The translations under genes and the position numbers were made by a program. This document shows, piece by piece, positions 30,692-54,336 of a stretch of 64,000 nucleotides of DNA. The stretch lies in the NCBI GenBank assembly GCA_031291675.1, contig JARLIO010000005.1:1-64000 (forward strand). Reading direction: 5' to 3'. Under the pieces are notes generated by a model, which was given only the letters and a program-made list of their open reading frames with translations, did not search any database and was not told the origin of the DNA. Numbering within the stretch: the stretch's first letter is position 1; the number at the start of each line of letters is the position of its first letter. Origin of the DNA: Azospirillaceae bacterium. Its GTDB lineage: Bacteria; Pseudomonadota; Alphaproteobacteria; Azospirillales; Azospirillaceae.

Positions 30692-30875
30692 AAGTAATAT
30701 CCTTCATGACTGGTATGGTATTTCGCCAGAAACGGTAATTTTAATTGTTCACATGCAATTCGCGACATGAAATGTCATGATCTGTTTTGCATGGACATTT
30801 CTTTTGAATTGTGTTTCTTTGAAACGGTCCGCAGGGCGCTTCCTGCCAAGAGCCAATTCAATGACGGAGGAACGC

Positions 30876-31397
30876 GTGACAGACAGTTTCGTCGGCGAAA
30901 TACGGATGTTCGGCTTTCGCTGGGCGCCTTCGGGCTGGGCGCTCTGTGAGGGTACCGTTCTTAGCATTCAACAGAATGCCGCCTTGTATGCCTTGATTGG
31001 CAAAACCTTTGGCGGTGACGGCAAAACAACATTCGCTCTGCCGGATCTGCGTGGCCGCACCTGGCTCGGCGCCGGCGCCGGCTTCGTCGTTGGGACGGCG
31101 TCTGGCGACGAGACCATCGCGCTTGATCTCATCTCGATGCCGCAACACACGCACGCCGTCGAGGCCTATGACGGCGGCGGCAGCTACAATCCCAACAAGG
31201 GTGGCGCGCTTTATGCCACGGCGCCGTCGACCGCGCCGGTGACCAACCTGTACGGCGCGGCAAGCGGCACACCCCAGTTGCTGAATCCCGGCACGGTCGA
31301 CACCGCCGGCTCCGGGGCCAAACATAACAATATGCAACCCTTTGCCGTCGTCAATTTCTGTATCTGTACTGCGGGAGATTTTCCCACGCGGCCATGA
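30876..31397 (+). CDS. Phage tail-collar (MdpB-like) protein, locus 1 copy 1
   Basis: 173 aa from a GTG at 30876: GGAGG lies at 30866-30870, and starting here aligns VTDSFVGEIR with the openings of the other copies (MTDYFLGEIR, MADAFIGEIR), whereas the ATG at 30861 adds five residues. The collar-domain motif is F-x-G-E-I-R...P-x-G-W...C-E-G...YALIGKTFGGDGKTTFALPDLRGR, ending in NNMQPFAVVNFCIC. These domains occur in phage tail fibres and microcystin-dependent proteins; here no other phage genes are near. It is the first of three tandem copies. Confidence 0.88.
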   Translation: MTDSFVGEIRMFGFRWAPSGWALCEGTVLSIQQNAALYALIGKTFGGDGKTTFALPDLRGRTWLGAGAGFVVGTASGDETIALDLISMPQHTHAVEAYDGGGSYNPNKGGALYATAPSTAPVTNLYGAASGTPQLLNPGTVDTAGSGAKHNNMQPFAVVNFCICTAGDFPTRP

Positions 31398-31441
31398 TGC
31401 CATTGATATCGACAACCTCATCGAATCGGGGATGTTAAACT

Positions 31442-31972
31442 ATGACTGATTATTTTCTGGGGGAGATTCGCCTGTTTTCTGGCAACTATGCGCCAGTAGA
31501 CTTCCTTCCCTGCGATGGCCGATCGCTTTCCGTGTCGGATAATCAACCTCTGTTTGCGTTGATCGGCACGATCTGGGGCGGGGACGGTGTCACAAAGTTC
31601 GCGCTTCCCGATCTGCGCGGCCGCGCGCCGATTGGCCAGGGATCGGGACCGGGGCTGACCTCCCGCACGATCGGTCAGACCGGCGGCGCGGAAACCGTCG
31701 CGCTGACCGACGCTTCGATGCTTCCGGCCCATTCTCACGGCTGGAACATCCAGGCGACGGAGGCGAAGTCCGTGACACCGACCAAAAACCTGTTGGCGCA
31801 ACTGCCGACCGGCACCGCCGGTTTTGTAAAATCAGCTGACGTGGTGGGCACGATCGCGTTCAGCGATACGATGTGCGCATTCGATGGCGGCAACCAGTCT
31901 CACACCAACATGATGCCAAGTCTGGCCCTGACTTACATGATCTGCACCAACGGGCTGTATCCGAGCTCGTAA
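31442..31972 (+). CDS. Phage tail-collar (MdpB-like) protein, locus 1 copy 2
   Basis: 176 aa: MTDYFLGEIRLFSGNYAPVDFLPCDGRSLSVSDNQPLFALIGTIWGGDGVTKFALPDLRGRAPIGQG, the full collar motif. The variable middle (about 80-150) and the NQSHTNMMPSLALTYMICTNG end follow. It lies 44 bp after copy 1 and is probably co-transcribed. Sequence differs markedly from its neighbours outside the motif, so these are old paralogues, not fresh duplications. Function is unknown; surface fibre-like trimers are possible. Confidence 0.88.
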   Translation: MTDYFLGEIRLFSGNYAPVDFLPCDGRSLSVSDNQPLFALIGTIWGGDGVTKFALPDLRGRAPIGQGSGPGLTSRTIGQTGGAETVALTDASMLPAHSHGWNIQATEAKSVTPTKNLLAQLPTGTAGFVKSADVVGTIAFSDTMCAFDGGNQSHTNMMPSLALTYMICTNGLYPSS

Positions 31973-31994
31973 GCGTGACGGGAGGAAATGCACC

Positions 31995-32561
31995 ATGGCT
32001 GACGCTTTCATCGGAGAAATCCGTGCCTTCGGCTTTTCCTGGGCACCGTACGGCTGGTTCTTGTGTGACGGATCTTTGGTCCCAACCGCACAATACCAGG
32101 CCCTCGCAGCGGTGATCGCCAAAGCATTCGGCAGCCCGGACAACAACAATTTCAACCTTCCAAATCTTGTTGCGCGCACCCCGATCGGCGCCGGAACGGG
32201 GACCAACCTAACCCGCCGTCCCTTTGCCTCGACTGTCGGCGCTGCACAGGTGACTTTGACCGAGGCCGAGATGCCCTCTCATCATCATCAGATGAAATTG
32301 GCCGCCGGGAAATCGGCAGCCATCGAAATCGCCACGCCGGATGCCACCAGCTATCCGACGCGGGTTTCAAATGTCACGGTCTCCCCGGCGGTCTCTATTC
32401 ATGCCTTCGTCGAGGCATCGGCGAGCCCCGCCAACACGACGATGGCCCCGAGCACGCTGGCGACCTCCGGTAGCGGCGGATCGCATCCGAACCTCCAGCC
32501 CCTGCTGCCGCTGAATTTTTACATCTGCTGGATCGGCTGGTACCCGGTTCCCCCCAGTTGA
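31995..32561 (+). CDS. Phage tail-collar (MdpB-like) protein, locus 1 copy 3
   Basis: 188 aa: MADAFIGEIRAFGFSWAPYGWFLCDGSLVPTAQYQALAAVIAKAFGSPDNNNFNLPNLVARTPIGAG. The collar core is slightly diverged (LPNLVAR for LPDLRGR). The C-terminus HPNLQPLLPLNFYICWIG is typical. GGGAGGAA precedes the ATG by 8 nt; the gap to copy 2 is 22 bp. It closes the collar set; a GNAT remnant and the peptide locus follow on the same strand. Confidence 0.87.
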   Translation: MADAFIGEIRAFGFSWAPYGWFLCDGSLVPTAQYQALAAVIAKAFGSPDNNNFNLPNLVARTPIGAGTGTNLTRRPFASTVGAAQVTLTEAEMPSHHHQMKLAAGKSAAIEIATPDATSYPTRVSNVTVSPAVSIHAFVEASASPANTTMAPSTLATSGSGGSHPNLQPLLPLNFYICWIGWYPVPPS

Positions 32562-33084: not shown

Positions 33085-33267
33085 ATGCCAACGGATGATC
33101 GAGAACCGACCGAACGCGGTGACAGTGAGGTTCGCGCGGACAGGGGAGCTGCCGTGGCGCACCGTCCGTTATGGCGACGTCCGGAGGTTTCGGTTTTGAG
33201 TATTGAAATCGGAACGGCGACCGGCAGCACCAGCAGTTCTCAGGACAGCGGGTTTTATTCCTCCTGA
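33085..33267 (+). CDS. Candidate lasso-peptide precursor, locus 1
   Basis: 60 aa; the acidic N-terminus is followed by W30-R-R-P33, then eleven residues to T44-A45, and TGSTSSSQDSGFYSS at the end. In lasso leaders an aromatic-x-x-P motif is read by the PqqD-like protein and a Thr occupies the second-last leader position. With T44 in that place the core is T46-S60, and Asp54 is core residue 9, a normal macrolactam acceptor. If the core starts at G47 the ring has 8 residues. The core is Ser-rich and ends in Ser, as in kinase-modified paeninodin. A GTG at 33154 with AGGGGAG is an alternative start. The cyclase gene follows within 50 bp. Confidence 0.7.
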   Translation: MPTDDREPTERGDSEVRADRGAAVAHRPLWRRPEVSVLSIEIGTATGSTSSSQDSGFYSS

Positions 33268-33315
33268 TGCCTGGTCACAACGGGCCCGCATGATCGGGTG
33301 TCAAGGTCGTCGGCA

Positions 33316-35214
33316 ATGAGTTCATTTCTGGGGGCGGTATCGTTCGCCGGCGCCGCGGCTGACCTTCCCGGTGATATCGGCTCACCACCCGACGAAATCG
33401 GATTGCGGTCCTGCGCACGGTTCCGGGCGGCCCATACGGTCATTGCCTACCGTGACCACGCTGTGACACCGGCGGATCAGAATCGTTCCCGACCCTGCCC
33501 GGCATGGGGCGGGCAGGGCTGGGTGTGTTTCACCGGACGCCTGGACGACCGGGCCGTGCTGGCCGATGCGCTTGACCTTGAATTCGCCGAGGGTATTGCC
33601 GACAGCCTGTTGGCCTGCCGGGCGCTGGAGCGCTGGGGTGAAGAGGGTATCGCGCGCCTGCTCGGCGAATTCGCCCTTGCCGCCTGGCACGATGGTGAAA
33701 GGCGGCTGATCATCGCGGGTGATCTGCTGGGATCGCGGACCATCTATTATTGCCGGCGCGCCGACATGGTCTTGTTTTCGACCACGCTCCGGGGTCTGCT
33801 CGCCTCGCCGCACGTCTCCCGGGCGCTCGATGAATGCCACATCGCCGATTTTCTGGCGCGAAATTGCGGCGATGACGATGCCACCTTCTATCGCGATATC
33901 CGCAAGGTCATTCCCGGCCACGGCGTGGTCATCGAGGCCGAACGGACGCGGACAATCGCCGGCCGTCGTCTCGATCCCGACCGCCGCCTTCGCCTGAAGG
34001 ACGACCAGGCCTATGTCGAGGCGGCGCGGGAACTGCTGGACCAGGCGGTCGCAGATCGCCTGCGCGCCGCAGGGCCGGTGCTGATTTCGGCCAGCAGCGG
34101 CCTCGACAGTGCCTGCATCGCCGTCAGCGCGGCGTCGCGCGGGGTGCCGGTCACGCTGTTGACCGCGGTCCCGGACCCCGGTCTGCCGACCGTCCAGGTC
34201 CGGGGGCGATATGGCGACGAACGCCCGCCGGTCGAGGCCCTGGTGGCCGCGTTGCCCGGTCTGACCGCCGAGTTCCACCCGCCGCCCGTGGACACCGACT
34301 GGAGTCCCGACCAGCTAACCAGTATCGCCGCCGGCGGCATTCCCAGCAAGATCCCGTTCCAGATGCCCTGGTTCGGTGGCGTCCACCGGCGTGCCGCGGC
34401 GCTGGGCGCCAGCTCGATCCTGGGCGGTGCTTTTGGCAATTTCTTCCTCAGCTGGGACGGGATCCGCGGCCTGCAGACCCTGCTTTGTCGCGGAAGGCTG
34501 GTTCCCCTCGCCCGTGAGCTGGTCCTGGGTTCCCACGGCCATCCGAGGCGGTTCCTCGGCCTCGTCAAGCGTGGCCTGGTGCACCCGTTGCTCGGTGGCC
34601 GGATCCGCCCCCTTGACCTGGAGGGCTATTCGGCGCTGGACCCGCAGGTGGTGAAGGATTTCGCGGTCATCGAGCGGCTGCGTCAGCGCGGCAACAGCGC
34701 CCGTTTCGCCTTCCGCGGTGACAGCCGGCAGCTGCGCCTGCACGGACTGCGGCGGAACCGTTTCTGGTCCGCCGACCAGTTGAGCGTGTTGCGCAGCCTC
34801 TATGGTCTGCAGGAAAGCATGCCGCTCGCCGATCCGCGGCTGATCGATTTCTGCCTGGCAATTCCGGAGGATCAGTTTCTGCGCGACGGGACCGACCGCT
34901 ACCTGGCACGACGGTTGTTGCGGGCCGCGGGCGTTCCCGCCGTGATCACCGAAAACCGCCAGCGGGGATACCAGCATCCGGAGTGGTTTGCGCATATGTC
35001 CCGGATCCAGCCCTCGCTGCCCGCCCAGATCGATCGGATTCGCCGGTCACCCACGGCACGACGTCTGATTGACCTTGACCGCCTGGACCATATCGTCGCC
35101 CATTGGCCGCGCGATGCGGCGGAGGCGGAACGCCGGAAAGGCGAGGTCAGGACCTTGCTGAACGGTGCGCTGAGCGCCGGCACTTTTATCGCCTGGGCCG
35201 AAGGCACGAACTGA
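33316..35214 (+). CDS. Asparagine-synthetase-like lasso cyclase (C protein), locus 1
   Basis: 632 aa from the ATG at 33316 (GTG at 33298 possible). The glutaminase-like N-terminal half lacks the usual Cys2 nucleophile, as in lasso C proteins. The ATP-pyrophosphatase half carries the P-loop S-S-G-L-D-S at 260-265 (canonical SGGLDS with one change). C proteins adenylate the Asp or Glu side chain of the core and close the ring on the N-terminal amine. The gene follows the precursor candidate directly and is convergent to the sulfotransferase/kinase/PqqD operon. A true asparagine synthetase would be expected to keep Cys2. Confidence 0.82.
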   Translation: MSSFLGAVSFAGAAADLPGDIGSPPDEIGLRSCARFRAAHTVIAYRDHAVTPADQNRSRPCPAWGGQGWVCFTGRLDDRAVLADALDLEFAEGIADSLLACRALERWGEEGIARLLGEFALAAWHDGERRLIIAGDLLGSRTIYYCRRADMVLFSTTLRGLLASPHVSRALDECHIADFLARNCGDDDATFYRDIRKVIPGHGVVIEAERTRTIAGRRLDPDRRLRLKDDQAYVEAARELLDQAVADRLRAAGPVLISASSGLDSACIAVSAASRGVPVTLLTAVPDPGLPTVQVRGRYGDERPPVEALVAALPGLTAEFHPPPVDTDWSPDQLTSIAAGGIPSKIPFQMPWFGGVHRRAAALGASSILGGAFGNFFLSWDGIRGLQTLLCRGRLVPLARELVLGSHGHPRRFLGLVKRGLVHPLLGGRIRPLDLEGYSALDPQVVKDFAVIERLRQRGNSARFAFRGDSRQLRLHGLRRNRFWSADQLSVLRSLYGLQESMPLADPRLIDFCLAIPEDQFLRDGTDRYLARRLLRAAGVPAVITENRQRGYQHPEWFAHMSRIQPSLPAQIDRIRRSPTARRLIDLDRLDHIVAHWPRDAAEAERRKGEVRTLLNGALSAGTFIAWAEGTN

Positions 35215-35334: not shown

Positions 35335-36180
35335 TCAAAGATAGCCGAAACGGGCCATGACAGCGCCGTGATCGCGCGTAATCCGGGCGATCTGAGCGGC
35401 GGAAAGCTGGTCGCGCCAGCAACCAGCCCTGCCTTCGCGAAAAAATGGCGCGGTGGCGCAGACCAGCCGCTCTCGAAAGCCAGCGGCCTGTTCCTGTCGC
35501 TGCAGATGATCGAACCGGGTGGCCGATACCGCCGAATCAAGCAGCCCGGTCGTCGTGGCAATGCCCAGATGCGCCGCGGCCCGCGCCAGGGACTCCCGCG
35601 GCTCGCGCAGCATGTCTTCATATCTGATCACGAGCGCGGGAATCTCGCCCTGCTCGATCCAGGACAGGACATGACCGCTCCAGGAGCCCAGCGGCTGGGG
35701 CAATTGTTCGGGGCCGCGGGATCCCGGATGCCCCAGCACAACACCATCATCGGCCATGCGCTCGATGATCGCGTCGATGCTGACGCCATAATGGTGGGAC
35801 CAGGAAATCGCGACATCGCGGGGATCGCGGATCAGATAAATCGCCCCGATGCTCAAATCGGGCACGAAGGCGGCGATGCCCGCGGGCGTGCGCCAGAAAC
35901 GGTCATGAACCTTGCGCAGCAGCAGCGCCGCATCACTGTTGGCCAGAAACTCGGCATGAAAGGCCGTCATGGCCGCCGCAATCTCGGTTTCGGTCAGTTC
36001 ACTTGATTCGATCCCCAGGAACTCGTCCATCTCGGCAAAACTGGCGACGCCGGTTTTGGCGGCCGTCGCGTTGATGTTGACCGCCGCACCGCCGGACAAG
36101 ACGCAGGACAGCATCAGGCGCAACCAGGTATTGCCGGATTTCGGGTAGGAAACCAACCACCCGAATCGTCCACCGGTCAT
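35335..36180 (-). CDS. PAPS-dependent sulfotransferase, locus 1
   Basis: 281 aa: the 5'-phosphosulfate loop YPKSGNTWLR at 12-21, the 3'-phosphate motif RDPRDVAIS at 118-126, a likely base in KVHDRFWR (H92), and REGRAGCWRDQLS near the C-terminus. These are the Sulfotransfer_1 signatures, so the enzyme transfers sulfate from PAPS to a hydroxyl or amine. The start overlaps the kinase stop by 4 bp (ATGA), giving a PqqD-kinase-sulfotransferase operon. The lasso core is the attractive substrate, but this is inference. Confidence 0.88.
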   Translation of the reverse strand: MTGGRFGWLVSYPKSGNTWLRLMLSCVLSGGAAVNINATAAKTGVASFAEMDEFLGIESSELTETEIAAAMTAFHAEFLANSDAALLLRKVHDRFWRTPAGIAAFVPDLSIGAIYLIRDPRDVAISWSHHYGVSIDAIIERMADDGVVLGHPGSRGPEQLPQPLGSWSGHVLSWIEQGEIPALVIRYEDMLREPRESLARAAAHLGIATTTGLLDSAVSATRFDHLQRQEQAAGFRERLVCATAPFFREGRAGCWRDQLSAAQIARITRDHGAVMARFGYL

Positions 36181-37106
36181 GGAAGATCCTTCATCATGGC
36201 AATCAGCAGCCGCACAATCTCAACATGTTGCGACGGCTGGTCGGTACGCGTCAGGCTGAAAATCGGAACCAGCCCTGCCAGGCGGGTCAGATCCTGGAAC
36301 AAACCGGCGCGCCGTCCCAGGCGTCGCCCCAATCGCGCGCGATAGAGGATCTCATCCGATTGGCGCAAAGTTGCCATCCCGGACACGCGGGTCAGACACG
36401 GTCCCTCGAGACGATTGTCGGTCTGGAGCCGCACCACCGCACCCAGAGGCACCAACCCGGGTGGCATTGCGGGCAGGACCAGAAGTCGTTTGGGATGCCC
36501 GGAGCGCCCTGGCGCCAGGGCCTCGGGTGAATGGCCTGACATCCGTGCGCCATCCGGCCACAGACGAAGCCGGGACGAACCCGGCACCGTCCAGGTGCGT
36601 GCATCCGAAAAACAGACACGGCAGATATCATCGGTCAACACGGGAAATCCTTGCGCGGCCAGCAGCGCGGCCAGCGTCGATTTACCCCGCCCGGCCGGTC
36701 CGGCAATGACAAGGGCGCGGTCGCCGATGACGACGCAACTGGCATGCAGCGCCAGATCGCCCCGCTGATGCAGGACAATGCCGGCAACGCTGCCCAGCAG
36801 CATCGTCTCGACATCGCCCGCGTCAGGAAGCGCCGCCGCATTGACAATGATCTGCCGTCCCCCGACGACGCGGAACCGGATATGATCGCCGACGCGCAGC
36901 AGAACATCGCCCGCCCCGCCGATTTGCACGAACGGGCCGCGCCAGATCGCGGCGGGCAATTCCACCGGAACATCACCGGAAATCAACTCGATGTCCGCCG
37001 GCCCCTCCCGAGGCAGCGACCGCAAGGAGGTCAACGGCAGATCCGTCCGAAGGCGATAGCCATAGAAAAGGCGGTCTTCCGCCTGTGACAGAATCCGATG
37101 GGTCAT
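36177..37106 (-). CDS. HPr-kinase-like protein (lasso tailoring kinase type), locus 1
   Basis: 309 aa. Walker A GPAGRGKS lies at 136-143, preceded by the family motif LHQRGDLALHAS at 112-123. The C-terminal part lacks the full HPr-binding region of true HprK. Such truncated HprK homologues phosphorylate the C-terminal Ser of lasso peptides such as paeninodin. The gene sits directly after the PqqD gene (no gap) and overlaps the sulfotransferase gene by 4 bp. The Ser-ending core at 33267 fits this role. Confidence 0.85.
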   Translation of the reverse strand: MTHRILSQAEDRLFYGYRLRTDLPLTSLRSLPREGPADIELISGDVPVELPAAIWRGPFVQIGGAGDVLLRVGDHIRFRVVGGRQIIVNAAALPDAGDVETMLLGSVAGIVLHQRGDLALHASCVVIGDRALVIAGPAGRGKSTLAALLAAQGFPVLTDDICRVCFSDARTWTVPGSSRLRLWPDGARMSGHSPEALAPGRSGHPKRLLVLPAMPPGLVPLGAVVRLQTDNRLEGPCLTRVSGMATLRQSDEILYRARLGRRLGRRAGLFQDLTRLAGLVPIFSLTRTDQPSQHVEIVRLLIAMMKDLP

Positions 37107-37415
37107 TCAGGCTGACCGGCCGTCCGCGCTCACGACCACCAGATCGAGTTCGTCGAGGCGATCCAGCAAATCGCAGACATCCTGCCGGATCACCGCCGGG
37201 TCGCCGGAGAACTCGCGCGCGAGCCCCTCGCACAACGTCGCAACCGTCTGTGGCCGTTCCAGGCGACGCCAAATAATCGAGGCGATGTCGTCAAACCCGA
37301 CATAGATGCCCTGTGCCAAACCCATCACCACCACCTGGGCATCAATCTCGGCGGCGAGTTGCCCGGCACGCTGGGCGACGATGGTGTCCGGTTCGAAATG
37401 CGGCGTTTTCACCAT
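37107..37415 (-). CDS. PqqD-like RiPP recognition protein (B1), locus 1
   Basis: 102 aa from the ATG at 37415, chosen because AGGAGCAGAGGCA precedes it and because the start then matches its locus 2 counterpart; the longer frame to 37709 runs through a repeat. The winged-helix PqqD pattern is seen: VVVMGLAQGIYVGFDDIASIIWRRLERPQTVATLCEGL. These proteins bind the leader peptide and bring it to the modifying enzymes. It heads the kinase/sulfotransferase operon. Its promoter must lie in or beyond the family B repeat just upstream. Confidence 0.85.
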   Translation of the reverse strand: MVKTPHFEPDTIVAQRAGQLAAEIDAQVVVMGLAQGIYVGFDDIASIIWRRLERPQTVATLCEGLAREFSGDPAVIRQDVCDLLDRLDELDLVVVSADGRSA

Positions 37416-37428
37416 TGCCTCTGCTCCT

Positions 37429-45867: not shown

Positions 45868-46914
45868 TCAGCGACGAAGATCGGGCAAGTGGAAATGCGG
45901 CGGTCCGACGCGATCGGCGCCGAGACTGATGTCCTTGAGTTCTTGCCCGTGCCGCTCGAAATCCAGGCGGGAAACGTTTCCGGTGCGAGCGTTCGGCACC
46001 AGATCCGCCAGATCAATCTCCGCCACCAAGGCATGCAGGGCCTGCTTGAGTTCGTGCAGGTGCTCGCCCGCCGCCCTCTCTCCGGCGAGCCGGGGGGCGT
46101 CCTGGCGGAACAAGGGATTGCCGATGGCGCGGCGGCGCAGCGCATGGACAAGGTCGACCCCGCGCACCGGCTGGACGCCGATGGTGAGATGGACGCTGGG
46201 AACCTCGCCCGCACCGACATTATGGGCACCATGCCACTCACCGCGCGGCACGAACAGCAGGTCGCCGCTGTTCAACGGGAACTCTTCGACCGGCATGTCG
46301 ACGGTGCGGTCCAGTTTCCCCCATTCGGCGACGGTTTCGGGGGTCGGCAGATGTTCCGGTTGGTCGTAGAGGCGCCAATATTTTGCCCCCGACACCTGCG
46401 CGACGATGACGTCATGGTCGTCGAAATGCGGATCGAAGCCAAATCCGGGGCCGAAGGTCAGATAGGCATTGATCCAGACCCGGGCCCGCAGGATGACAGA
46501 CAGATCGTTGCGCAGCCGCAGCAAGGGCGGATGCATCCCGTGGATGCCGTTGATGATGAGGGTGGCGCCTTGCCGCAACAGGTCGCACAGTGCGGTCGGG
46601 TTGATCCGCGGTCGCGGAAAGGGGGCAAACCAGAACCGGCTGGAAATCGCCACACCATGGCGAAACAGCCTCACATCCGCGTGTTGCTCCTCCACGGCCA
46701 GGCGATCGCTGTCCAGGATGGCGTTAACCGCCGGCCAGTCGAGCAGAGTGGCAAAGCGCGGTGCTTCGCCACGCAGCAGCAGACGCTTCCCGGCGGCCGT
46801 CGCCGCGACAAAGTCGCCAACCTCGACAGGCGCGATCAGCGCGCCAAATCGTTCAACAGAACCAGGATCATGCACGAGACGATTTCCTTGCAGAATCACA
46901 TTGGCGAAGATCAT
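45868..46914 (-). CDS. JmjC/cupin_4-type 2-oxoglutarate Fe(II) oxygenase-like protein
   Basis: About 348 aa with the metal motif H-x-D (GFDPHFDDHDVIVAQVSGAKYWRLY) and the distal His (FVPRGEWHGAHN), the facial triad of JmjC/ribosomal-oxygenase-type cupins that hydroxylate protein side chains. The start is uncertain: ATG at 46914 or a GTG at 46875 with AAGGA. The divergent kinase gene begins at 46937, so the promoters must overlap the 5' ends. Its place at the edge of locus 2 suggests a peptide or protein modifier, but an unrelated role is possible. Confidence 0.8.
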   Translation of the reverse strand: MIFANVILQGNRLVHDPGSVERFGALIAPVEVGDFVAATAAGKRLLLRGEAPRFATLLDWPAVNAILDSDRLAVEEQHADVRLFRHGVAISSRFWFAPFPRPRINPTALCDLLRQGATLIINGIHGMHPPLLRLRNDLSVILRARVWINAYLTFGPGFGFDPHFDDHDVIVAQVSGAKYWRLYDQPEHLPTPETVAEWGKLDRTVDMPVEEFPLNSGDLLFVPRGEWHGAHNVGAGEVPSVHLTIGVQPVRGVDLVHALRRRAIGNPLFRQDAPRLAGERAAGEHLHELKQALHALVAEIDLADLVPNARTGNVSRLDFERHGQELKDISLGADRVGPPHFHLPDLRR

Positions 46915-46936
46915 AGCCCGAGCGGTCAGGCCCGTC

Positions 46937-47875
46937 ATGGAAGAGATGTCGCAGGCATCAGGGGCGGAATTGCCTGATTATTGGTTCTACGGCCTGCGCC
47001 TGCGCACCGATCTGCCATTGACCGCGCTGTCGCCCTGGCCGGACAATCGGGGAGCGGCGGACATCGACTGTCGCCTCGGCGCGGTTCCCGAACGGCTGGA
47101 AGCCCCGGTCTGGGCCACCCAAGGCATGGCGATGGCATCCGACGGCTCGATCCTGAGACGGTTGGGCGATATGGGACGCGCCCTGATCCGCAACGGCGAT
47201 ACCCTCCGCATCGCGCTGTCCCGGCCGGACCCGCCGGAACTGGCAATGGACGCCTACCTCCTGGCCGGCTTGGCCACCACGCTGTTGCATCAGCGGGGTG
47301 ACCTGCCGATGCATGCCAGCGCGGTGGAGACGGCGGGACGCGCCCTGCTGTTCGCCGGCCCTGCCGGTGGTGGCAAATCGACCCTTGCCGCCTGGCTGGC
47401 GCAGGAGGGCTACAGGTTGTTGAGCGACGACATCACCGTCATCCGCTTCCAGGCGGACGGAACGCCGCTGGCCGTTCCCGGATCACCTCATCCAAGGCTG
47501 TATGATGATGCGGCGGCACTGGTCGGCGTGTCGGAGCTGAGACTATCCGCCCGCCGGTCGGTCGGAAAGCGGATCTGGCTGCGGCCGGCGCAGGAACTCG
47601 CCCCCCGGCCCCTGGCCGCCATCATCCGCCTGGCCAAGGATCCCGCCCTTGCCAAACCGACCCTGGAGCGGCTGCGCGGGCTCGCAGCGATCATGCCGTC
47701 TGAGGAACTCTGGCATGGCATGCCGCTGGCCCGCCGGCTAGGCCGCTCCCTGGTTTTGGCCGGGGAGATGGCGCGGATTGCCGCCACCGTGCCGGTCTAC
47801 CGCCTGACCCGTCCCGCCGCTCGACCCAATCTGCCGGCCATCGCCGATCTGGTGCGCAATCTGCCGGTGTTATGA
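46937..47875 (+). CDS. HPr-kinase-like protein, locus 2 copy a
   Basis: 312 aa: Walker A GPAGGGKS at 141-148, preceded by LHQRGDLPMHAS at 117-128 as in the locus 1 kinase. The ATG at 46937 is followed by the SQASGAELPDYWFYGLRLRTDLPLTAL segment, which parallels FYGYRLRTDLPLTSL in locus 1. It is closer to the locus 1 kinase than to the second locus 2 kinase, judged by eye. It stands 95 bp upstream of the precursor candidate on the same strand. The likely reaction is phosphorylation of the precursor Ser. Confidence 0.84.
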   Translation: MEEMSQASGAELPDYWFYGLRLRTDLPLTALSPWPDNRGAADIDCRLGAVPERLEAPVWATQGMAMASDGSILRRLGDMGRALIRNGDTLRIALSRPDPPELAMDAYLLAGLATTLLHQRGDLPMHASAVETAGRALLFAGPAGGGKSTLAAWLAQEGYRLLSDDITVIRFQADGTPLAVPGSPHPRLYDDAAALVGVSELRLSARRSVGKRIWLRPAQELAPRPLAAIIRLAKDPALAKPTLERLRGLAAIMPSEELWHGMPLARRLGRSLVLAGEMARIAATVPVYRLTRPAARPNLPAIADLVRNLPVL

Positions 47876-47970
47876 TTTCGCCACAAGCGGAAGGGTTGCA
47901 GCAGCGAGGATCGTCATTTATAGATCCTAAATAGCAAGAGGCCCGTGAACCAAGACCCTGGAGGATGTTG

Positions 47971-48135
47971 ATGGAAGAGCGTGATAACGACAAGGAATCC
48001 GCCGATGCCGTCAACCTGGCCGCGCCCGCCGCCCGCCGCCCCTGGCACCGGCCGGTTATGGATGTGGTGCCGATCGCGGTGGCCACCGCGCTAAATTCCA
48101 ACCACACTTCAGATAATGGCAACAGCCTGTCCTGA
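47971..48135 (+). CDS. Candidate lasso-peptide precursor, locus 2
   Basis: 54 aa, with GGAGG (about 47960) 6 nt before the ATG. The acidic N-terminus leads to W25-H-R-P28 and, eleven residues on, T39-A40, exactly the spacing found in the locus 1 candidate. The predicted core is LNSNHTSDNGNSLS (L41-S54), in which Asp48 is residue 8, the usual ring acceptor, and the last residue is Ser. Leu at core position 1 is uncommon but known lasso peptides tolerate several residues there. The kinase gene is upstream and the cyclase gene 80 bp downstream. The two candidates share no obvious similarity outside these positions, which argues for selection on the motif. Confidence 0.75.
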   Translation: MEERDNDKESADAVNLAAPAARRPWHRPVMDVVPIAVATALNSNHTSDNGNSLS

Positions 48136-48215: not shown

Positions 48216-50117
48216 GTGGCGATTGCGGGGTTGGTTTTCTTTTCAGGGGAGGATGAGCGGGCGGACGCCCGGCGGTCCCTGCGTGCGATGGGCGGGGCCG
48301 GACCGGTCGTGCTGGCCCGGTCTCCTGGTGTTTCCATTGCCACCGCCGGCTGCGGTCCCCTGGCTCCCATCGAAGGGGAGGGGGGCCGCTATCTCGCCGC
48401 CTTCGCGGGCCGTCTGGATAACCGGGAGGGGCTGAGCCGGCGATTGCAGATCGCCGAGGGTCGCAAATGCCGCGACGCCGAGTTGCTGGTGCGCGCCTGC
48501 CAGCGCTGGGGGGATGATTTCGCCGATCAGATGATCGGAGAGTTCGCGTTCGCCCTGTGGGATGAGACGCGGCGGCGGCTGGTGCTGGGCCGGGACGCGC
48601 TGGGTTGCCGGCCGCTGCATTTCTGGCGCGGCCCGAATTGTCTGTTTTTCGCCTCGGAGCCACGGGGACTGCTGGCCCAGCCGGCGGTCCCCCGGGCGAT
48701 CGATCCCGTCGGGGTGGCCCGTTGGCTGGCCTTGCTGCCGGCGACGGGAACCGGCAGCCTCCATGCCGGGATCGAGCGCGTGCCACCCGGGCATGTCGTG
48801 ATTGCCGATGAAGGGGGCTGCCGGCTGTACCGCTATTGGCGGCCGGAAAATTTGGCGCCGGTCCGGCTGCGCGGCGACGCCGACTATGCGCGGGCCCTGC
48901 GTGATCTGCTGGATCAGGCGGTCGCCTGCCGGCTGCCGGCGACCGGGGAAACCGGGATCAGCATGAGCGGCGGTCTCGACAGCACCAGCGTCGCCGTTCT
49001 CGCGGCCCGCCACCTGGCCGAACAGGGCCGGCGGCTGACCGTGTTCACGGCGGTGCCGTCCGCCCCCGTCGATGCCGGCTGGTTTCCCGGCCGGATCTGT
49101 GATGAAGGAGCCGCCGCCGCCTCGGTCGTCGCCCGCCATCCGAATATGGATCATGTGCTGATCCCCAATGACGCCCTGTCCTGGTTCGACGCCCAGGATC
49201 GCGCCGCTTGCGGCAGCGACCGTCCGGTGCTCAATCCCGGCAACGCGATGTGGGCGGAGGCGATCCTGCGGGCGGCGAAGGCGCGGCGATTGAGCGTGCT
49301 GATGGATGGCGGGATGGGAAATATGACCATCAGCTATGATGGCCTGCCCTGGCTGGCCCAGCTTTGCCGCGCCGGCGACGGGGTGCAACTGGCCGGACAG
49401 ATTTTCGCCCTGTGGCGCAACGGTTATTCTCTGGCGTCCTTGCTGAACCAGGCGGTCGGCCCGATCCTGCCCAGGGCGTTGCGCCACCTGGCAGTCCGGG
49501 CCATGGGCCGCCGCCCGCCGCCCGGACTGCATGATTTTTCCGCCATCCATCCCGATTTCCTCCGGCGGCTCGGTCTGGCGGATGAGGCGCTGGAGATTGC
49601 CGGCAGCATGCACAATACCGAGGCCGGACGGCGCGGCGACCCGCGCCTGGCCGTGATACAACGCAACGACCGCGGCCTCTCCTATCCGCACCAGCGGCGG
49701 AATGGCGGGGTGGAGCGCGCCGACCCGACCTGCGACCGGCGCGTTGTGGAGTTCTGCCTGGCCATTCCGCCCGGGCAGTTCCTGCGCGGGGGTCAGCCAC
49801 GCTCCCTGATCCGGCGGGCCATGGCCGATCTGTTGCCCGCGCCGTTGCTGCGGGATCGCCGCCGCGGGCTGCAAGCCGCGGACTGGCACCGGGCGGCGAC
49901 GGCGGCCCGGCCGGAAATGCTGGCCGAGATCGACCGTTTGCAGCGCAGCGCCTTTGCCCGGGAATGCCTGGATTTGCCGCGCTTGCGGCGGCTGCTCGAA
50001 AACTGGCCGGCAGACGGCTGGAGCGACCCGGCGATCGTCGACCAGTACCAGCATCTGCTGGGCCGAGGCTTGTCCCTCGGACGTTTCGTGCGCCGCTTTG
50101 AAGGCGCAAACGAATAG
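48216..50117 (+). CDS. Asparagine-synthetase-like lasso cyclase (C protein), locus 2
   Basis: 633 aa from a GTG at 48216 (the ORF opens with AIAGLVFFSG). The N-terminal half has no Cys2 nucleophile; the ATP-binding half keeps SGGLDS at 251-256 and LMDGGMGN later. This matches C proteins that form the isopeptide ring after ATP activation of the acidic side chain. The precursor ends 80 bp upstream; the sulfotransferase gene is convergent with only 10 bp between the stops. The paralogue in locus 1 is clearly related in domain layout but distant in sequence. Confidence 0.84.
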   Translation: MAIAGLVFFSGEDERADARRSLRAMGGAGPVVLARSPGVSIATAGCGPLAPIEGEGGRYLAAFAGRLDNREGLSRRLQIAEGRKCRDAELLVRACQRWGDDFADQMIGEFAFALWDETRRRLVLGRDALGCRPLHFWRGPNCLFFASEPRGLLAQPAVPRAIDPVGVARWLALLPATGTGSLHAGIERVPPGHVVIADEGGCRLYRYWRPENLAPVRLRGDADYARALRDLLDQAVACRLPATGETGISMSGGLDSTSVAVLAARHLAEQGRRLTVFTAVPSAPVDAGWFPGRICDEGAAAASVVARHPNMDHVLIPNDALSWFDAQDRAACGSDRPVLNPGNAMWAEAILRAAKARRLSVLMDGGMGNMTISYDGLPWLAQLCRAGDGVQLAGQIFALWRNGYSLASLLNQAVGPILPRALRHLAVRAMGRRPPPGLHDFSAIHPDFLRRLGLADEALEIAGSMHNTEAGRRGDPRLAVIQRNDRGLSYPHQRRNGGVERADPTCDRRVVEFCLAIPPGQFLRGGQPRSLIRRAMADLLPAPLLRDRRRGLQAADWHRAATAARPEMLAEIDRLQRSAFARECLDLPRLRRLLENWPADGWSDPAIVDQYQHLLGRGLSLGRFVRRFEGANE

Positions 50118-50127
50118 GCCAAGCCAG

Positions 50128-50964
50128 TCAGGCCAGATAACCCAGCCGCCGCATCACCGGCCCATGGTCGCGCTCAATTCTGGCTGCCTGTGCAACGGAC
50201 AGGCGGTCGCGCCAGGCGCCGGCGATGCCCTGGCGGAAAAAACGGGCACCGGGATTGAGCCGCGCTTCACTGAAGCCGTCAGCGGCTTCGGCCGCCCGCA
50301 GGACATCGAATCGGCTGGCCGCCACCGCCCGGCCGACGCGGACGGCGTCATGCGGGAAACCGGCCACCCGGGCGATGGCCTGGAACCGGCTTATCGGGTC
50401 GGCCAGCAGATCCTCGTAACGGAACAGGAACAAGGGCAAGCCGGACTCCAGCCAACTCAGCGCGTAGGCACTCCAACTGGAGACAAATTGGGGAATCTGG
50501 GCCCAGATCCCGTCCGATTGCTGTGGCAGGGGATAGGCGGGATCGGCCATCCGATCAATGGCGGCGTCAATGTCATAGCCGCCGCGATGGGCGAGGGACG
50601 GGGCAACGTCGCGAGGATCGCGCACCAGAAAGACGACCGCATCGATCATATCCGCCGGCAAGGGAAAGGCGCAGGTTCCCGGAAAGGGCAGCCAGGCGTC
50701 ATGCAGCTTCAGAACGACCGGTGGCGGACAGTCACACAACATAGCCCGGCAGGCTTCGCCGCGATATCGGGCGAATTCGGCGGGCAGAAGGTCGGATGTA
50801 TCCACATCAAGGGCATCGTCGTAATGCGCACGGCTGAGACGACCGTCACCGTAAAGCGCATTGATATCAACCGCGCCGCCGCCCTGGCGCAAGCTGGTGA
50901 GACAGGCGCGGACCCAGGTGTTGCCCGATTTTGGATAGGAGGCGACAAGCGTGACGCCGGTCAT
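50128..50964 (-). CDS. PAPS-dependent sulfotransferase, locus 2
   Basis: 278 aa: SYPKSGNTWVRAC at 9-21 (PAPS 5' loop), LVRDPRDVAPS at 113-123 (3'-phosphate motif), KLHDAW with the likely base His88, and RQGIAGAWRDRLS near the end. The start at 50964 overlaps the kinase stop (ATGA). It is the last gene of a collar-PqqD-kinase-sulfotransferase operon. The locus 2 core has no Tyr, so if the core is the substrate, sulfation must occur on Ser, Thr or a terminal group. Confidence 0.88.
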   Translation of the reverse strand: MTGVTLVASYPKSGNTWVRACLTSLRQGGGAVDINALYGDGRLSRAHYDDALDVDTSDLLPAEFARYRGEACRAMLCDCPPPVVLKLHDAWLPFPGTCAFPLPADMIDAVVFLVRDPRDVAPSLAHRGGYDIDAAIDRMADPAYPLPQQSDGIWAQIPQFVSSWSAYALSWLESGLPLFLFRYEDLLADPISRFQAIARVAGFPHDAVRVGRAVAASRFDVLRAAEAADGFSEARLNPGARFFRQGIAGAWRDRLSVAQAARIERDHGPVMRRLGYLA

Positions 50965-51896
50965 TGCTGAACCATCTTTTCCACCGCCGCGACCGTATCG
51001 GACAGTCCGGCCAGGCCGTGGCTGCGGATCAACCGCCCGGTCTGGCACTGATTGGCGATGCTGGCCATCGACAGGAACAGCCGGGGCGTCATGCCCCAGC
51101 GGTCGGCGACCCTTTGACGATGGACCAGACGATGCAGTTCCGCCGCGCCGGCCACTCCGTCCAGGGGGATGAAGGCCGGCATTTGCATGCGACCCGCCCA
51201 GGACAGCACGGCCACAGCGGCGAGCGGCACCGGTTGGCGGGGGAACGCATGGTGGTCGCCGATGACATGGCGGTGCTTCGCCAGTCCCGAACGGGTCGGC
51301 AACCGCCCGGATTCCGGCAGGCCCAGGGCCGTCGCCGCATCCCGCCACAGGCTGATGGCCGGGAAAGAGGGCAGCACCTGCGGACCCCCGGCGGCGAAGG
51401 CGTCGATGACGCAAAAACTGTCGGCCAACGGCACATGTCCACGCAGCGCCAGCGCCGCGGCCAGCGTTGATTTCCCATAGCCGGAATCGGCGGCAAGAAG
51501 AACGGCCCGACCGTCGATGGCAACACCGGCGGCGTGCAACGGACACAGATCCCGCTGAAGGCATAGCAGACTCAACACCGTTCCCAGCAGGAAGGTGCGG
51601 ATATCCGCGGCACCGGCACCGGTTTCCGGATCAATGATCACCTCCCGGCCATCCTGCACCAGATAGCGGGCGACACCATCAATGGCCAGACGTGCCGTGC
51701 GATGCTGATCAATTTCCAGCATCGGCGAGCGGTGAATGGCACCGGCCAAATGGCGAGGCACCGTTCCCCGGCGGACAACAATATCCGGCACAGCCTGTCT
51801 TTCCCCCGAACGAAGCAGCTCCGGCAAGGCCAGGTCCGACCGGACCTGCCACCCGCACAGAAAATGATCCGCCGTCAGGTCCCCCTCGCCGGCCAT
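50961..51896 (-). CDS. HPr-kinase-like protein, locus 2 copy b
   Basis: 311 aa: Walker A A-D-S-G-Y-G-K-S at 136-143, which differs from the GPAGxGKS of the other two kinases, and a weaker motif LCLQRDLCPLHAAG at 111-124. This copy may have another acceptor residue or be less active. Its start overlaps the PqqD stop by one base (TAATG) and its stop overlaps the sulfotransferase start by four. Locus 2 therefore has two kinases where locus 1 has one. Confidence 0.84.
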   Translation of the reverse strand: MAGEGDLTADHFLCGWQVRSDLALPELLRSGERQAVPDIVVRRGTVPRHLAGAIHRSPMLEIDQHRTARLAIDGVARYLVQDGREVIIDPETGAGAADIRTFLLGTVLSLLCLQRDLCPLHAAGVAIDGRAVLLAADSGYGKSTLAAALALRGHVPLADSFCVIDAFAAGGPQVLPSFPAISLWRDAATALGLPESGRLPTRSGLAKHRHVIGDHHAFPRQPVPLAAVAVLSWAGRMQMPAFIPLDGVAGAAELHRLVHRQRVADRWGMTPRLFLSMASIANQCQTGRLIRSHGLAGLSDTVAAVEKMVQQ

Positions 51897-52195
51897 TAAG
51901 AGCGGACGTCGATGATGCCCTGCGCCCGCATCTGCTCCAACAGGGGCAACACATCCGCCTCGATCACGTCAGCGGTCGCCTGATAATCCCGAACCAGGGC
52001 CGCACACAGGTTGGCCACTGTCGCTGGCCGGGCCAGACGCCGCCAGATATCGCTGCCGATATCGTCAAGCCCGCAATAGGTGCTGGCGGATAGGCTCATC
52101 ACCACCGTCTGGCCGCAAATGTCAGTGGCGAGTTGACGGTCCGACCAGGTGACGGTGTCGGCCAATGTGACCGGTGGAAGCTCTGGTGTCGGCAT
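51896..52195 (-). CDS. PqqD-like RiPP recognition protein (B1), locus 2
   Basis: 99 aa from the ATG at 52195; a TTG at 52219 overlapping the collar stop is possible. The PqqD pattern is SLSASTYCGLDDIGSDIWRRLARPATVANLCAALVRDY, aligning residue by residue with the locus 1 protein (YVGFDDIASIIWRRLERPQTVATLCEGL). It binds the W-x-x-P leader by analogy. It follows the last collar gene by 20 bp or less, which puts it in the collar operon. Confidence 0.86.
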   Translation of the reverse strand: MPTPELPPVTLADTVTWSDRQLATDICGQTVVMSLSASTYCGLDDIGSDIWRRLARPATVANLCAALVRDYQATADVIEADVLPLLEQMRAQGIIDVRS

Positions 52196-52215
52196 GGCTG
52201 ATCCGGGCGTGGAGG

Positions 52216-52797
52216 TCAATATGAGAATTCAGGATAGATGCCGGACAAGCAAATGCAATAATTCAGCGTCAGATAGGGCTGCCTATTGTCATGAGGAACC
52301 GTGGCACCACCCCGCCCGCCGCCGGTTGCCGCCAACATGAAGGGAAGGGCGGTGTTGGAGTTGGCCGCATAAGCTTCCGCGGTCCCGGCATTTTGTCCGG
52401 TCCAATGAAGGGAGTTCGCCAGATAGGATGCTGTCGATGGCTGATTGACAGCTTCGGCCGGTTTGCCAAGGGCAACGGCATGGCTGTGACCCGGCATCTG
52501 TCCGAGGCTTAACGTCACGGCGTCCGTTCCCCCGTTGCTGGCGAGCCTCGTCGAGCCGTTCCACCCGGGAAGGGCGCCGTTGGAGCTTCCCACCACGACC
52601 TGCCCGCGAAGATCCGGCAACATGAATGTAGAATTCGGCGGGGTCCCACCGCTTGACCCTGTCCCATAGATGGTGCCAATGAGGCTGTACAGCGCTAGCT
52701 GCTGTGACACCTGCATCGTCGCGCCATTGCAATAAGCCCAATCGCTTGGTGGGAACTGATAGGGCAATATGCGGATTTCGCCTACGAAACTGTCCAT
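52216..52797 (-). CDS. Phage tail-collar (MdpB-like) protein, locus 2 copy 3
   Basis: 193 aa: MDSFVGEIRILPYQFPPSDWAYCNGATMQVSQQLALYSLIGTIYGTGSSGGTPPNSTFMLPDLRGQVVVG, with a small insertion in the YGGDG loop, and DNRQPYLTLNYCICLSG at the C-terminus. AAAGGAGATAAGGACCA precedes the ATG. It lies directly upstream of the PqqD gene with 20 bp or an overlap between them, so its transcript continues into the peptide-tailoring genes. Confidence 0.88.
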   Translation of the reverse strand: MDSFVGEIRILPYQFPPSDWAYCNGATMQVSQQLALYSLIGTIYGTGSSGGTPPNSTFMLPDLRGQVVVGSSNGALPGWNGSTRLASNGGTDAVTLSLGQMPGHSHAVALGKPAEAVNQPSTASYLANSLHWTGQNAGTAEAYAANSNTALPFMLAATGGGRGGATVPHDNRQPYLTLNYCICLSGIYPEFSY

Positions 52798-52859
52798 TGG
52801 TCCTTATCTCCTTTCCATATCCGGCGAATGAACGGGATCCGTGCCACGGGGCAGCATCC

Positions 52860-53423
52860 TCAAGAGGTTGGGCGGTCGGGAAAAAGACCCCGGAGACAAA
52901 TGATATAATTCAGAATCAGATAGGGCATGCGGTTGTCATGAGGCAGGTTGCCGCCGACAGTACTCGGCACTGAGGTATCGCCACCCTCAATGATGTCGTT
53001 GCCAGAGACCTGGGTCCGTTTCCCGGTGGGGGTTGGCGAAAAAAAGCCAAAATTCGCTGACGGTTTACAGACCACCATGCTTTCCCCCAGCTGGTTGGTC
53101 GTTCCCGCAGCCGTGGACACCCGCAGACCATGCCGGTGGCTTGGAAGCGTTGCCTCGGTCAATTCAACGACACTACTGCCCCCGGTACTGGCCAACGCCC
53201 TGTTGGACAATCCTTGCCCCTGCCCCATATTGACCGGGATCCGGCAGCGCAGATCGGGAAGAGCAAAATTATTTCGACCATCCCCACCATAGCTGGTTCC
53301 AATCAGGTCGAACAGAGGTTGATTGTCAGCGACTGGAAGCATCGATCCGTCGCAGACGGCCCAGCCTTCCGGAATTCTCGGACAGGGCCAGATTCTGATC
53401 TCACCCAGATACGCCTCAACCAT
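52860..53423 (-). CDS. Phage tail-collar (MdpB-like) protein, locus 2 copy 2
   Basis: 187 aa from the ATG at 53423: MVEAYLGEIRIWPCPRIPEGWAVCDGSMLPVADNQPLFDLIGTSYGGDGRNNFALPDLRCRIPVNMG, then the variable part and HDNRMPYLILNYIICLRG. The 53471 start would place 16 extra residues before the conserved opening. The next collar gene is 62 bp downstream. A Cys replaces Gly in LPDLRCR, a minor deviation. Confidence 0.87.
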   Translation of the reverse strand: MVEAYLGEIRIWPCPRIPEGWAVCDGSMLPVADNQPLFDLIGTSYGGDGRNNFALPDLRCRIPVNMGQGQGLSNRALASTGGSSVVELTEATLPSHRHGLRVSTAAGTTNQLGESMVVCKPSANFGFFSPTPTGKRTQVSGNDIIEGGDTSVPSTVGGNLPHDNRMPYLILNYIICLRGLFPDRPTS

Positions 53424-53448
53424 GATACACTCTCCACGGGCATTTTGA

Positions 53449-54015
53449 TCAAGGGCGGGCGGGATAGACACCCGTTATCGCGACCAGGAAGCCAACCGTC
53501 AGGAATGGCTGCATATTCTCATGCGCGAAAGAGCCGCCGACCACCGTCTTGTCCGATGAAGGAGCAACCCCTGTCGTATTCAAGGTCATCATACCGGCCT
53601 GAACCTCGGTTGCCGTGGACAGGCCGTACAGATTGGCGGCTGGACTTGCCGGAGTTTGATTGATCGTCGCCAGAAAATGATTAACGCCCGCGACAACGCC
53701 GGCCGGATTGCTGTTCCCCAACAGGGGATGGGTATGCAGCGGCATTTGGTTCGGCGCCAAGGAAACCTGTTCCTCTCCGCCATGGAATCCTTGAACATGG
53801 TTGGGATCAGCGGGATCGGCGCCCAACGGGGTGCGACCCTGGAGATCGGGCAGCAGAAACGTTGTGTGGCCATCGCCGCCGAATGTCGTTCCATAGAGCG
53901 AATACAGGGCTTGATACTGGCTGATCGGCATTGCTTTCCCATTCGCCGCGAGCCAGCCCGTAGGGGCGAAATTGAATGAGACCATGCGGATCTCACCCAA
54001 AAATTGGTCGGACAC
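53449..54015 (-). CDS. Phage tail-collar (MdpB-like) protein, locus 2 copy 1
   Basis: 188 aa from the GTG at 54015. AAGGAGG sits 5 nt upstream of this codon, while the GTG at 54021 overlaps that site, so 54015 is the real start; it also aligns VSDQFLGEIR with the other copies. The core YGTTFGGDGHTTFLLPDLQGRTPLG and the ENMQPFLTVGFLVAITG end are intact. It is the first collar gene of the operon, 27 bp after the DUF6916-like gene. Confidence 0.88.
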   Translation of the reverse strand: MSDQFLGEIRMVSFNFAPTGWLAANGKAMPISQYQALYSLYGTTFGGDGHTTFLLPDLQGRTPLGADPADPNHVQGFHGGEEQVSLAPNQMPLHTHPLLGNSNPAGVVAGVNHFLATINQTPASPAANLYGLSTATEVQAGMMTLNTTGVAPSSDKTVVGGSFAHENMQPFLTVGFLVAITGVYPARP

Positions 54016-54042
54016 AGTCACCTCCTTCTTGAGTGCAGATGC

Positions 54043-54336
54043 TCAATTGAAGATCGCCTCATAGATCACACCGTCCCGATCACGGGCGAGCGGAACGATA
54101 AAGATGTCCAGCTTGCCTAAATCCGCATTTTCAAAGCCATATGACCCCTGAGGCAGGATGACCTGACGGGCGCAGTGGAAACGCAGACGGAAAGGCACAC
54201 GAACTTGCCCCGGATAGGGCCGGTTCGTCAGTCTCTGTACCATCGCCAGGGTCATCTCAAGCACGGCGTCACCGACCCGCACACGGAAGGCCTCGTGGAC
54301 GAGAGGGCCAAAACTCTCAAATTGCAGAAAAGTCAT
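54043..54336 (-). CDS. DUF6916-like protein of the tail-collar cassette (locus 2)
   Basis: 97 aa: MTFLQFESFGPLVHEAFRVRVGDAVLEMTL, VPFRLRFHCARQ, LPQGSYGFENADLGKLDIFIVPLARD, YEAIF. It parallels the locus 1 protein (30194-30517) in every conserved element. It heads the operon DUF6916-collar-collar-collar-PqqD-kinase-sulfotransferase. Function is unknown; a structural or chaperone role for the collar proteins is a guess. The promoter must lie in 54337-54570, shared with the methyltransferase gene; no ACGATCGT array is seen there. Confidence 0.76.
   Translation of the reverse strand: MTFLQFESFGPLVHEAFRVRVGDAVLEMTLAMVQRLTNRPYPGQVRVPFRLRFHCARQVILPQGSYGFENADLGKLDIFIVPLARDRDGVIYEAIFN

What the first reader, a model, noticed from the sequence alone, without database searches (positions are those of the whole stretch)
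47971..48135. Small lasso-peptide precursor candidate in locus 2
The 54-aa ORF ends in LNSNHTSDNGNSLS and has W25-x-x-P28, then T39-A40 just before the core, Asp at core position 8 and Ser at the end. It sits between an HprK-like kinase gene and an asparagine-synthetase-like cyclase gene with a good ribosome binding site. The features together are those of a lasso precursor of the kinase-modified paeninodin type. The Leu1 start would be unusual.
Basis: partly seen in the sequence, partly recalled or inferred. Interest (0 to 1): 0.9.

Follow-up and report, generated by a model that had tools for sequence, protein, structure and literature searches.

The report
Lasso-type peptide precursor, shared protease
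This 54-codon gene very probably encodes the precursor of a small ring-closed ("lasso"-type) peptide tagged at its last serine; the class is known, but here the enzyme that would cut the precursor is encoded elsewhere in the genome and three tail-fibre-like genes sit next door.

Summary
In detail: an ATG ORF at 47971-48135, 6 nt behind GGAGG, encodes ...RRPWHRPVMDVVPIAVATA|LNSNHTSDNGNSLS between an HprK-like kinase and an asparagine-synthase-type cyclase. It is not chance: a profile of 18 precursor-like ORFs (17 from other genomes, one from another contig of this genome, none from the window) ranks it second of 1320 window frames (E 3.4e-6); first is a matching ORF in the window's other locus (33085-33267, 1.6e-8); the next frame scores 0.39. 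In 16 cores outside the window, Asp/Glu sits at position 8 or 9 in 13; 0 of 20,000 shuffles reach that. The window cyclases group with a paeninodin-locus cyclase, apart from 21 AsnB rows (100/100). The kinase-modified lasso reading is supported, although the curated paeninodin precursor model does not hit it. Two features differ from usual loci: no B2 protease in either window locus, the genome's only B2 over the Pfam cut-off being on another contig; and a tail-collar gene triple, near 23 of 42 such cyclases and 0 of 20 AsnB controls. Threading, phosphorylation, sulfation and B2 action in trans are predictions. New variant of a known kind.

The parts
47971..48135 (+). Precursor A2 (54 aa): leader 47971-48090, core 48091-48132 (LNSNHTSDNGNSLS), stop 48133-48135
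   Evidence: profile without window rows E 3.4e-6
47960..47964 (+). GGAGG, ribosome-binding site 6 nt before the ATG at 47971
   Evidence: sequence
48216..50117 (+). C protein (lasso-type macrolactam synthetase, asparagine-synthase fold); SGGLDS at residues 251-256; no Cys at residue 2 of the frame as called
   Evidence: best NCBIfam model NF033535, 238 bits, below cut-off 525; alignment; tree; fold search
46937..47875 (+). HprK-like kinase K2a, directly upstream of the precursor; GPAGGGKST (Walker A, label recalled)
   Evidence: BLASTP E 5e-19 to the kinase-like gene (RefSeq name 'aldolase') of a paeninodin-family locus
50961..51896 (-). Second HprK-like kinase K2b
   Evidence: BLASTP E 5e-31 to the same gene
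50128..50967 (-). Sulfotransferase; YPKSGNTW (PAPS-binding motif, label recalled)
   Evidence: Pfam Sulfotransfer_1 3.3e-16, over cut-off
51896..52219 (-). B1, PqqD-type leader-binding protein
   Evidence: Pfam PqqD 1.8e-15, over cut-off; NF033536 52 bits, below cut-off 80
52216..54021 (-). Three tail-collar genes (52216-52797, 52860-53471, 53449-54021); relatives' copies are named 'tail fiber protein'; the last overlaps the B1 gene by 4 bp
   Evidence: Pfam Collar over cut-off for all three; names
54043..54336 (-). DUF6916 protein at the head of the collar module
   Evidence: Pfam 7.4e-25
45868..46938 (-). JmjC_2/cupin oxygenase-like gene, divergent from K2a; candidate tailoring enzyme
   Evidence: Pfam 3.8e-20; same family near 8 of 42 cyclases
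33085..33267 (+). Precursor A1 of the second window locus (60 aa, core TGSTSSSQDSGFYSS)
   Evidence: sequence; E 1.6e-8
33298..35214 (+). C protein of locus 1
   Evidence: NF033535 177 bits, below cut-off; tree
35335..36180 (-). Sulfotransferase of locus 1
   Evidence: Pfam 4.4e-25
36177..37106 (-). HprK-like kinase of locus 1
   Evidence: Pfam Hpr_kinase_C 0.0042, below cut-off; TIGR04352 36.9 bits, below cut-off
37107..37418 (-). B1/PqqD of locus 1
   Evidence: Pfam PqqD 53.2 bits, over cut-off; NF033536 39 bits, below cut-off
30777..32561 (+). Three tail-collar genes of locus 1; a DUF6916 gene lies divergent within 30194-30685 (-)

Best explanation
The ORF is the precursor (A) of a lasso-type RiPP of the kinase-modified kind. 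Inferred pathway: B1 (PqqD-type) binds the leader through its W-x2-P-x-M element; a B2 cysteine protease encoded outside the locus cuts after T39-A40; the C protein activates the side chain of core Asp8 and joins it to the amino group of Leu41, giving an 8-residue ring and a 6-residue tail; one or both HprK-like kinases phosphorylate, and/or the sulfotransferase sulfates, the C-terminal Ser before folding; the JmjC-type enzyme may hydroxylate a residue. Shown here: gene content, homology, leader and core geometry shared with relatives, absence of B2 from the locus and its presence elsewhere in the genome. Inferred: every catalytic step, the cut site, threading, the tags, and that the off-locus B2 serves this precursor.
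For: A profile with no row from the window ranks the two window ORFs 1 and 2 of 1320 frames. A fixed pattern rule near 42 cyclases gave 23 hits in 19 loci, 18 ending in Ser, against 46 of 352 frames in the same stretches. D/E at core 8 or 9 in 13 of 16 cores from outside the window (0 of 20,000 shuffles), 15 of 18 with the window's two. Leader kept while core varies: locus 1 and its nearest relative share RPLWRRPEV (cyclases 60% identical) but not the core. Kinase near 34 of 42 cyclases, B1 near 33, sulfotransferase near 18; 0 of 20 each in AsnB control loci. The cyclases group with a RefSeq-named lasso cyclase, apart from AsnB (100/100). A search of the own genome with a precursor profile gave three strong ORFs (E 1.1e-14 or better, next 0.013; that profile contained all three), each just upstream of one of its three high-scoring cyclases. 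The off-locus B2 passes the curated NF033537 cut-off (82.5 against 33 bits). In Azospirillum oryzae a homologous precursor is an annotated 'hypothetical protein', with a 'lasso peptide biosynthesis B2 protein' in the same locus. Proteobacterial HprK homologues phosphorylate the precursor's C-terminal Ser (PMC8498205, passages).
Against: No B2 in either window locus. Cyclases, B1 and kinases score below NCBIfam cut-offs, and the curated paeninodin precursor model does not hit. No close relative of locus 2 was found (best cyclase 41%), so conservation of the frame by synonymous change could not be tested. The tail NGNSLS has no aromatic or other large residue; F, Y or W occur in 7 of 18 tails, so threading is uncertain. 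No transporter among the 19 window proteins scanned with Pfam. C-terminal Ser is not universal: 39 of 44 profile hits at E<0.02 end in Ser; of the other five, one credible precursor ends in Gly and one in Thr, three look like noise.
Confidence: 0.87

Rival explanations
1. A macrolactam RiPP whose ring is closed but whose tail is not threaded (branched-cyclic, not lasso); the tagged serine is the functional end.
For: Short polar tail NGNSLS; 7 of 18 tails carry F, Y or W.
Against: The cyclase groups with a lasso-locus cyclase; a phosphate or sulfate on the last Ser could itself act as a plug (inference).
Confidence: 0.25
2. The locus is decaying: without B2 the precursor is made, perhaps phosphorylated, but never matured.
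For: B2 absent from both window loci; a GNAT-like stretch beside locus 1 looks truncated (my reading; not tested).
Against: The listed genes are open reading frames; a B2 with a B1-like gene before it exists on C42; other genomes also have fewer B2 than cyclases, for example 1 B2 and at least 5 cyclases in G114.
Confidence: 0.08
3. The ORF is a chance frame between two genes.
For: Short; no Pfam or NCBIfam hit.
Against: Profile, ribosome-binding site, core geometry and the same kind of ORF before cyclases in relatives.
Confidence: 0.03

Closest known systems
Paeninodin-type kinase-tailored lasso peptides of Firmicutes (PMC8498205, passages; annotated paeninodin-family locus of Priestia aryabhattai)
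   Same: HprK-like kinase (named 'aldolase' in the Priestia record; kinase likeness), B1, asparagine-synthase-type C, C-terminal Ser, W-x2-P-x-[L/M] leader element
   Different: Gene order; A upstream of C; no B2 or ABC transporter seen in the window loci; two kinases, a sulfotransferase and a JmjC-type gene; collar module; precursor not hit by NF033524
Proteobacterial kinase-lasso loci: S. yanoikuyae SyanK (Zhu 2016b as cited in PMC8498205 and PMC10368454) and Bradymonas bsf (PMC10368454, abstract and passages)
   Same: Kinase, B1, C; C-terminal Ser as target for SyanK; YxxPxL leader element and Asp8 in Bradymonas
   Different: bsf encodes BsfB1 and BsfB2 together, has Ile at -2 and phosphorylates Ser3; the passages seen mention no collar genes
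Citrulassin, whose peptidyl arginine deiminase is encoded outside the cluster (PMC8498205, passage)
   Same: An enzyme of the pathway acts from outside the locus
   Different: There a tailoring enzyme; here it would be the leader protease

Membership tests
Lasso peptide (class) | Precursor with leader, Thr at -2 (Ile/Val in some) and D/E at core 7-9 | tested here: met
   T39 at -2, D48 at core 8; pattern in relatives
Lasso peptide (class) | Asparagine-synthase-type C protein | tested here: met
   By homology and tree: best NCBIfam model is the lasso cyclase NF033535 but below its cut-off; groups with a lasso-locus cyclase, apart from AsnB
Lasso peptide (class) | B1 (RRE) protein | tested here: met
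   PqqD over the Pfam cut-off; lasso-specific NCBIfam model below its cut-off
Lasso peptide (class) | B2 transglutaminase-like protease | tested here: inconclusive
   None in the window loci; one in the genome on contig C42, NF033537 82.5 against 33 bits. Whether it acts on this precursor is untested; residence in the locus is usual, not defining.
Lasso peptide (class) | Threaded macrolactam product | not testable with these tools
   needs MS, protease, ion-mobility or NMR data
Kinase-tailored lasso peptides | HprK-like kinase in the locus and a C-terminal Ser | tested here: met
   two HprK-like genes, below Pfam and NCBIfam cut-offs but similar to the gene of a paeninodin-family locus; Ser54
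Kinase-tailored lasso peptides | Phosphorylated precursor or product | not testable with these tools
   needs an assay
Paeninodin precursor family (NCBIfam NF033524) | Precursor over the curated score of 27 | tested here: not met
   no NCBIfam hit for either window precursor at E<=10; positive control, the Priestia precursor, 57.7 bits
HPr-rel-A system (TIGR04352) | Kinase over the curated score of 200 | tested here: not met
   48.6, 42.6 and 36.9 bits

The most novel reading that the evidence does not exclude
Lasso-type peptides of this alphaproteobacterial branch work together with the three-protein tail-collar module, for example as a peptide carried by, bound to or released with a secreted fibre, and one B2 protease elsewhere in the genome matures several such peptides.
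Probability: 0.28. Interest if true: 0.8.

Novelty: new variant of a known kind. Interest (0 to 1): 0.5.

Why it matters
It describes a multiply tailored lasso branch (kinase, sulfotransferase, oxygenase-like gene) whose members fall below current curated models; the relatives' cyclases that I looked up are named only as asparagine synthetase or synthase-related. One B2 for several loci is directly testable and would change how clusters are mined. The recurrent collar triple is an unexplained partner that could show what these peptides do.

Tried and rejected
Considered and rejected: the HPr-rel-A system (kinase scores far below cut-off); ordinary asparagine synthetase (tree; neighbourhood control); a recent tandem duplication of the two window loci (their cyclases lie in different starred subclades).

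Led nowhere: a genome-contig scan with the locus 2 cyclase found no relative, and one with the L066 cyclase found only that same record, an uncultured Rhodospirillales MAG. The collar monomer model was poor (mean pLDDT 66.4) and I did not search it. PDB sequence and fold searches of the cyclase gave members of the asparagine-synthetase superfamily on top (TsnB9 hydroxyamidotransferase, beta-lactam synthetase, AsnB). A paper search for 'lasso peptide', 'in trans' and 'B2 protein' gave two listings, not opened.

Weak points of the counts. The 40 fetched loci are most of the strongest hits, not all (for example G114:C6:118701, G032:C41:184874 and G050:C174 were skipped). Several end at contig edges, and some are near copies (L046 and L047), so the loci are not independent. 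One search keeps one family per overlapping stretch, and its profiles were iterated on the same loci: B2 is near 20 of 42 cyclases there, 23 of 42 when I compare the places with the fetched ranges by hand. The tree used 39 of 42 lasso-type cyclases (L048, L058 and L061 were dropped because the aligned stretch was under 1.2 kb). The 20 control loci were picked by me from the weaker hits; G072:C41 was left out because collars and B2 lie close to it, and it proved to be a lasso locus (L104). The 18 training precursors were picked by eye. The fixed rule lists 23 hits; the five that do not end in Ser (two with W, three with F) look like wrong frames and I left them out of the cores, as also L068 and L069, which that rule missed. 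In the own genome three further cyclase-like hits (C92, C34, C23; 67-81 bits) score like AsnB on my profile (182-233 bits, against 459-764 for the 42), and no PqqD hit lies on C92, C34 or C23; I did not put them in the tree.

Full report
Observation. The ORF and the stated features are there. It starts at ATG 47971 behind GGAGG with 6 nt spacing and ends at 48135. The leader has high third-position GC (0.82, second position 0.50); the 14-codon core does not (0.57 and 0.43).

Surroundings. On the + strand: HprK-like kinase 46937-47875, precursor, cyclase 48216-50117. On the - strand, in one run from 54336 down to 50128: DUF6916, three collar genes, B1/PqqD, a second HprK-like kinase, a sulfotransferase, with overlapping or closely spaced ends. 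Divergent on the left is a JmjC_2/cupin gene, 45868-46938. A second locus at 30.2-37.4 kb has a cyclase, sulfotransferase, one kinase, B1, collar triple and DUF6916, no JmjC gene, and its own precursor that the finding did not mention: 33085-33267...HRPLWRRPEVSVLSIEIGTA|TGSTSSSQDSGFYSS.

Is it more than chance. I searched 145 genomes (own and 144 relatives) with the cyclase; 99 have a hit at E<=1e-20, many of them weaker AsnB-like ones. I fetched 40 loci, 39 from relatives and one more from the own genome, and looked for short ORFs before the cyclase. A profile from 18 such ORFs (17 from other genomes, one from own contig C13, none from the window) put the two window ORFs on top of 1320 frames at 1.6e-8 and 3.4e-6, the next at 0.39. 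A fixed pattern rule near the 42 cyclases gave 23 hits in 19 loci; 18 end in Ser, against 46 of 352 frames of those stretches. Counting core residues from Thr+2 in these 18, D/E falls at 8 or 9 in 15 and at 7, 8 or 9 in 17; within-core shuffles reached 15 in 0 of 20,000. Without the two window cores it is 13 of 16, again 0 of 20,000. This is the geometry of a lasso precursor.

The cyclase. NF033535 (lasso cyclase) is the best NCBIfam model for both window cyclases and for the third on C13, at 238, 177 and 170 bits, all under the cut-off of 525. In a tree of 39 lasso-type cyclases, 21 AsnB rows from 20 control loci and the cyclase of an annotated paeninodin-family locus, the AsnB rows are one side of a branch (100/100) and the named lasso cyclase falls with the window's, on a long branch. 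Locus 1's nearest row is 60% identical (L066), locus 2's 41% (L040). The 20 control loci carry no hit for kinase, sulfotransferase, B1, B2, collar, JmjC or precursor; the 42 lasso-type loci carry them in 34, 18, 33, 20, 23, 8 and 35.

B2. The own genome (5.87 Mb, 97.7% complete) has one Transglut_core3 gene over the cut-off, on contig C42 just after a PqqD-like gene, with no cyclase in the 19.9 kb fetched around it; it passes the curated lasso B2 model. So three high-scoring cyclases and three precursors face one B2. Other genomes also have fewer B2 (E<=1e-6) than such cyclases: G114 1 for at least 5, G027 2 for 4, G032 4 for 5, G045 1 for 2, and G085 none for 2. Where I fetched a single cyclase locus of a genome, 18 of 21 have B2 inside it; of the other three, G005 and G020 sit on short contigs and G041 has its B2 genes on other contigs (compared by hand). 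Sharing one B2 in trans is the simplest reading for the own genome; draft contigs weaken it for some others, and G085 is unexplained.

Collar module. The six collar hits of the own genome are the two triples of these two loci. Collar genes lie within 9.5 kb of 23 of 42 lasso-type cyclases, three copies in 21, the other two being cut by contig ends; 0 of 20 controls (Fisher p 9.8e-6, loci not independent). In G114 two triples have a precursor-like ORF upstream (about 40 nt in L100, E 4.5e-6; 445 nt in L099, E 0.0032, with a B1 gene) and no cyclase in the 16 kb fetched. Against a strict tie: of 19 further collar regions that I fetched, 12 show none of the lasso-locus genes (L087-L095, L097, L098, L102), two of these, L097 and L098, in a genome with lasso loci, as also L095. 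Collar genes occur in 86 of 145 genomes and B2 in 36, so the module clearly has a life without lasso peptides. I found no paper that joins the two in the open library: 'lasso peptide' with 'tail collar' 0 and 'lasso' with 'microcystin dependent protein' 0; with 'phage tail' 18, ten seen as listings, and with 'tail fiber' 3, listings only.

Known or new. Kinase-tailored lasso peptides of Firmicutes and Proteobacteria are known, with phosphorylation of the C-terminal Ser shown (PMC8498205, passages). A putative sulfotransferase gene in some lasso clusters is noted there and in PMC4289311 (passages); of the 15 papers with 'lasso peptide' and 'sulfotransferase' I saw passages of these two and listings of the rest. 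Ile at -2 and Ser3 phosphorylation were shown in Bradymonas (PMC10368454, abstract and passages). This locus is therefore a new variant of a known kind. Unusual are the off-locus B2, two kinases with a sulfotransferase and an oxygenase-like gene in one locus, and the collar partner. The window's family is probably that of Azospirillum: contig G062:C7 has the length of plasmid p1 of Azospirillum sp. TSH100 (325,924), and G062 is marked same family (inference).

Noticed in passing
window 33085-33267 (+): A second lasso-type precursor, in locus 1 and not in the finding; core TGSTSSSQDSGFYSS with Asp9.
   Followed up: yes
L055 (G000:C13:1-12000), precursor at C13:2633-2785 (-): A third precursor and cyclase of the same genome, core NNSTRVNDSTSDQHS, with kinase and sulfotransferase beside them.
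   Followed up: partly
window 30194-32561 and 52216-54336: DUF6916 plus three collar genes form a module that also occurs without lasso genes in relatives, in some with a GNAT gene.
   Followed up: partly
window 42834-45584: Large TPR protein with a family-41 glycosyltransferase domain left of locus 2.
   Followed up: no
window 32636-33070: GNAT-like stretch between the collars and precursor 1 that looks truncated beside the GNAT genes of named relatives (by eye).
   Followed up: no
L099 and L100 (G114): Precursor-like ORFs upstream of collar triples with no cyclase in the fetched 16 kb.
   Followed up: partly
G000:C49:393-593 and C96:17240-17428: Two further PqqD-like genes of the own genome, without a cyclase in the stretches fetched.
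   Followed up: partly
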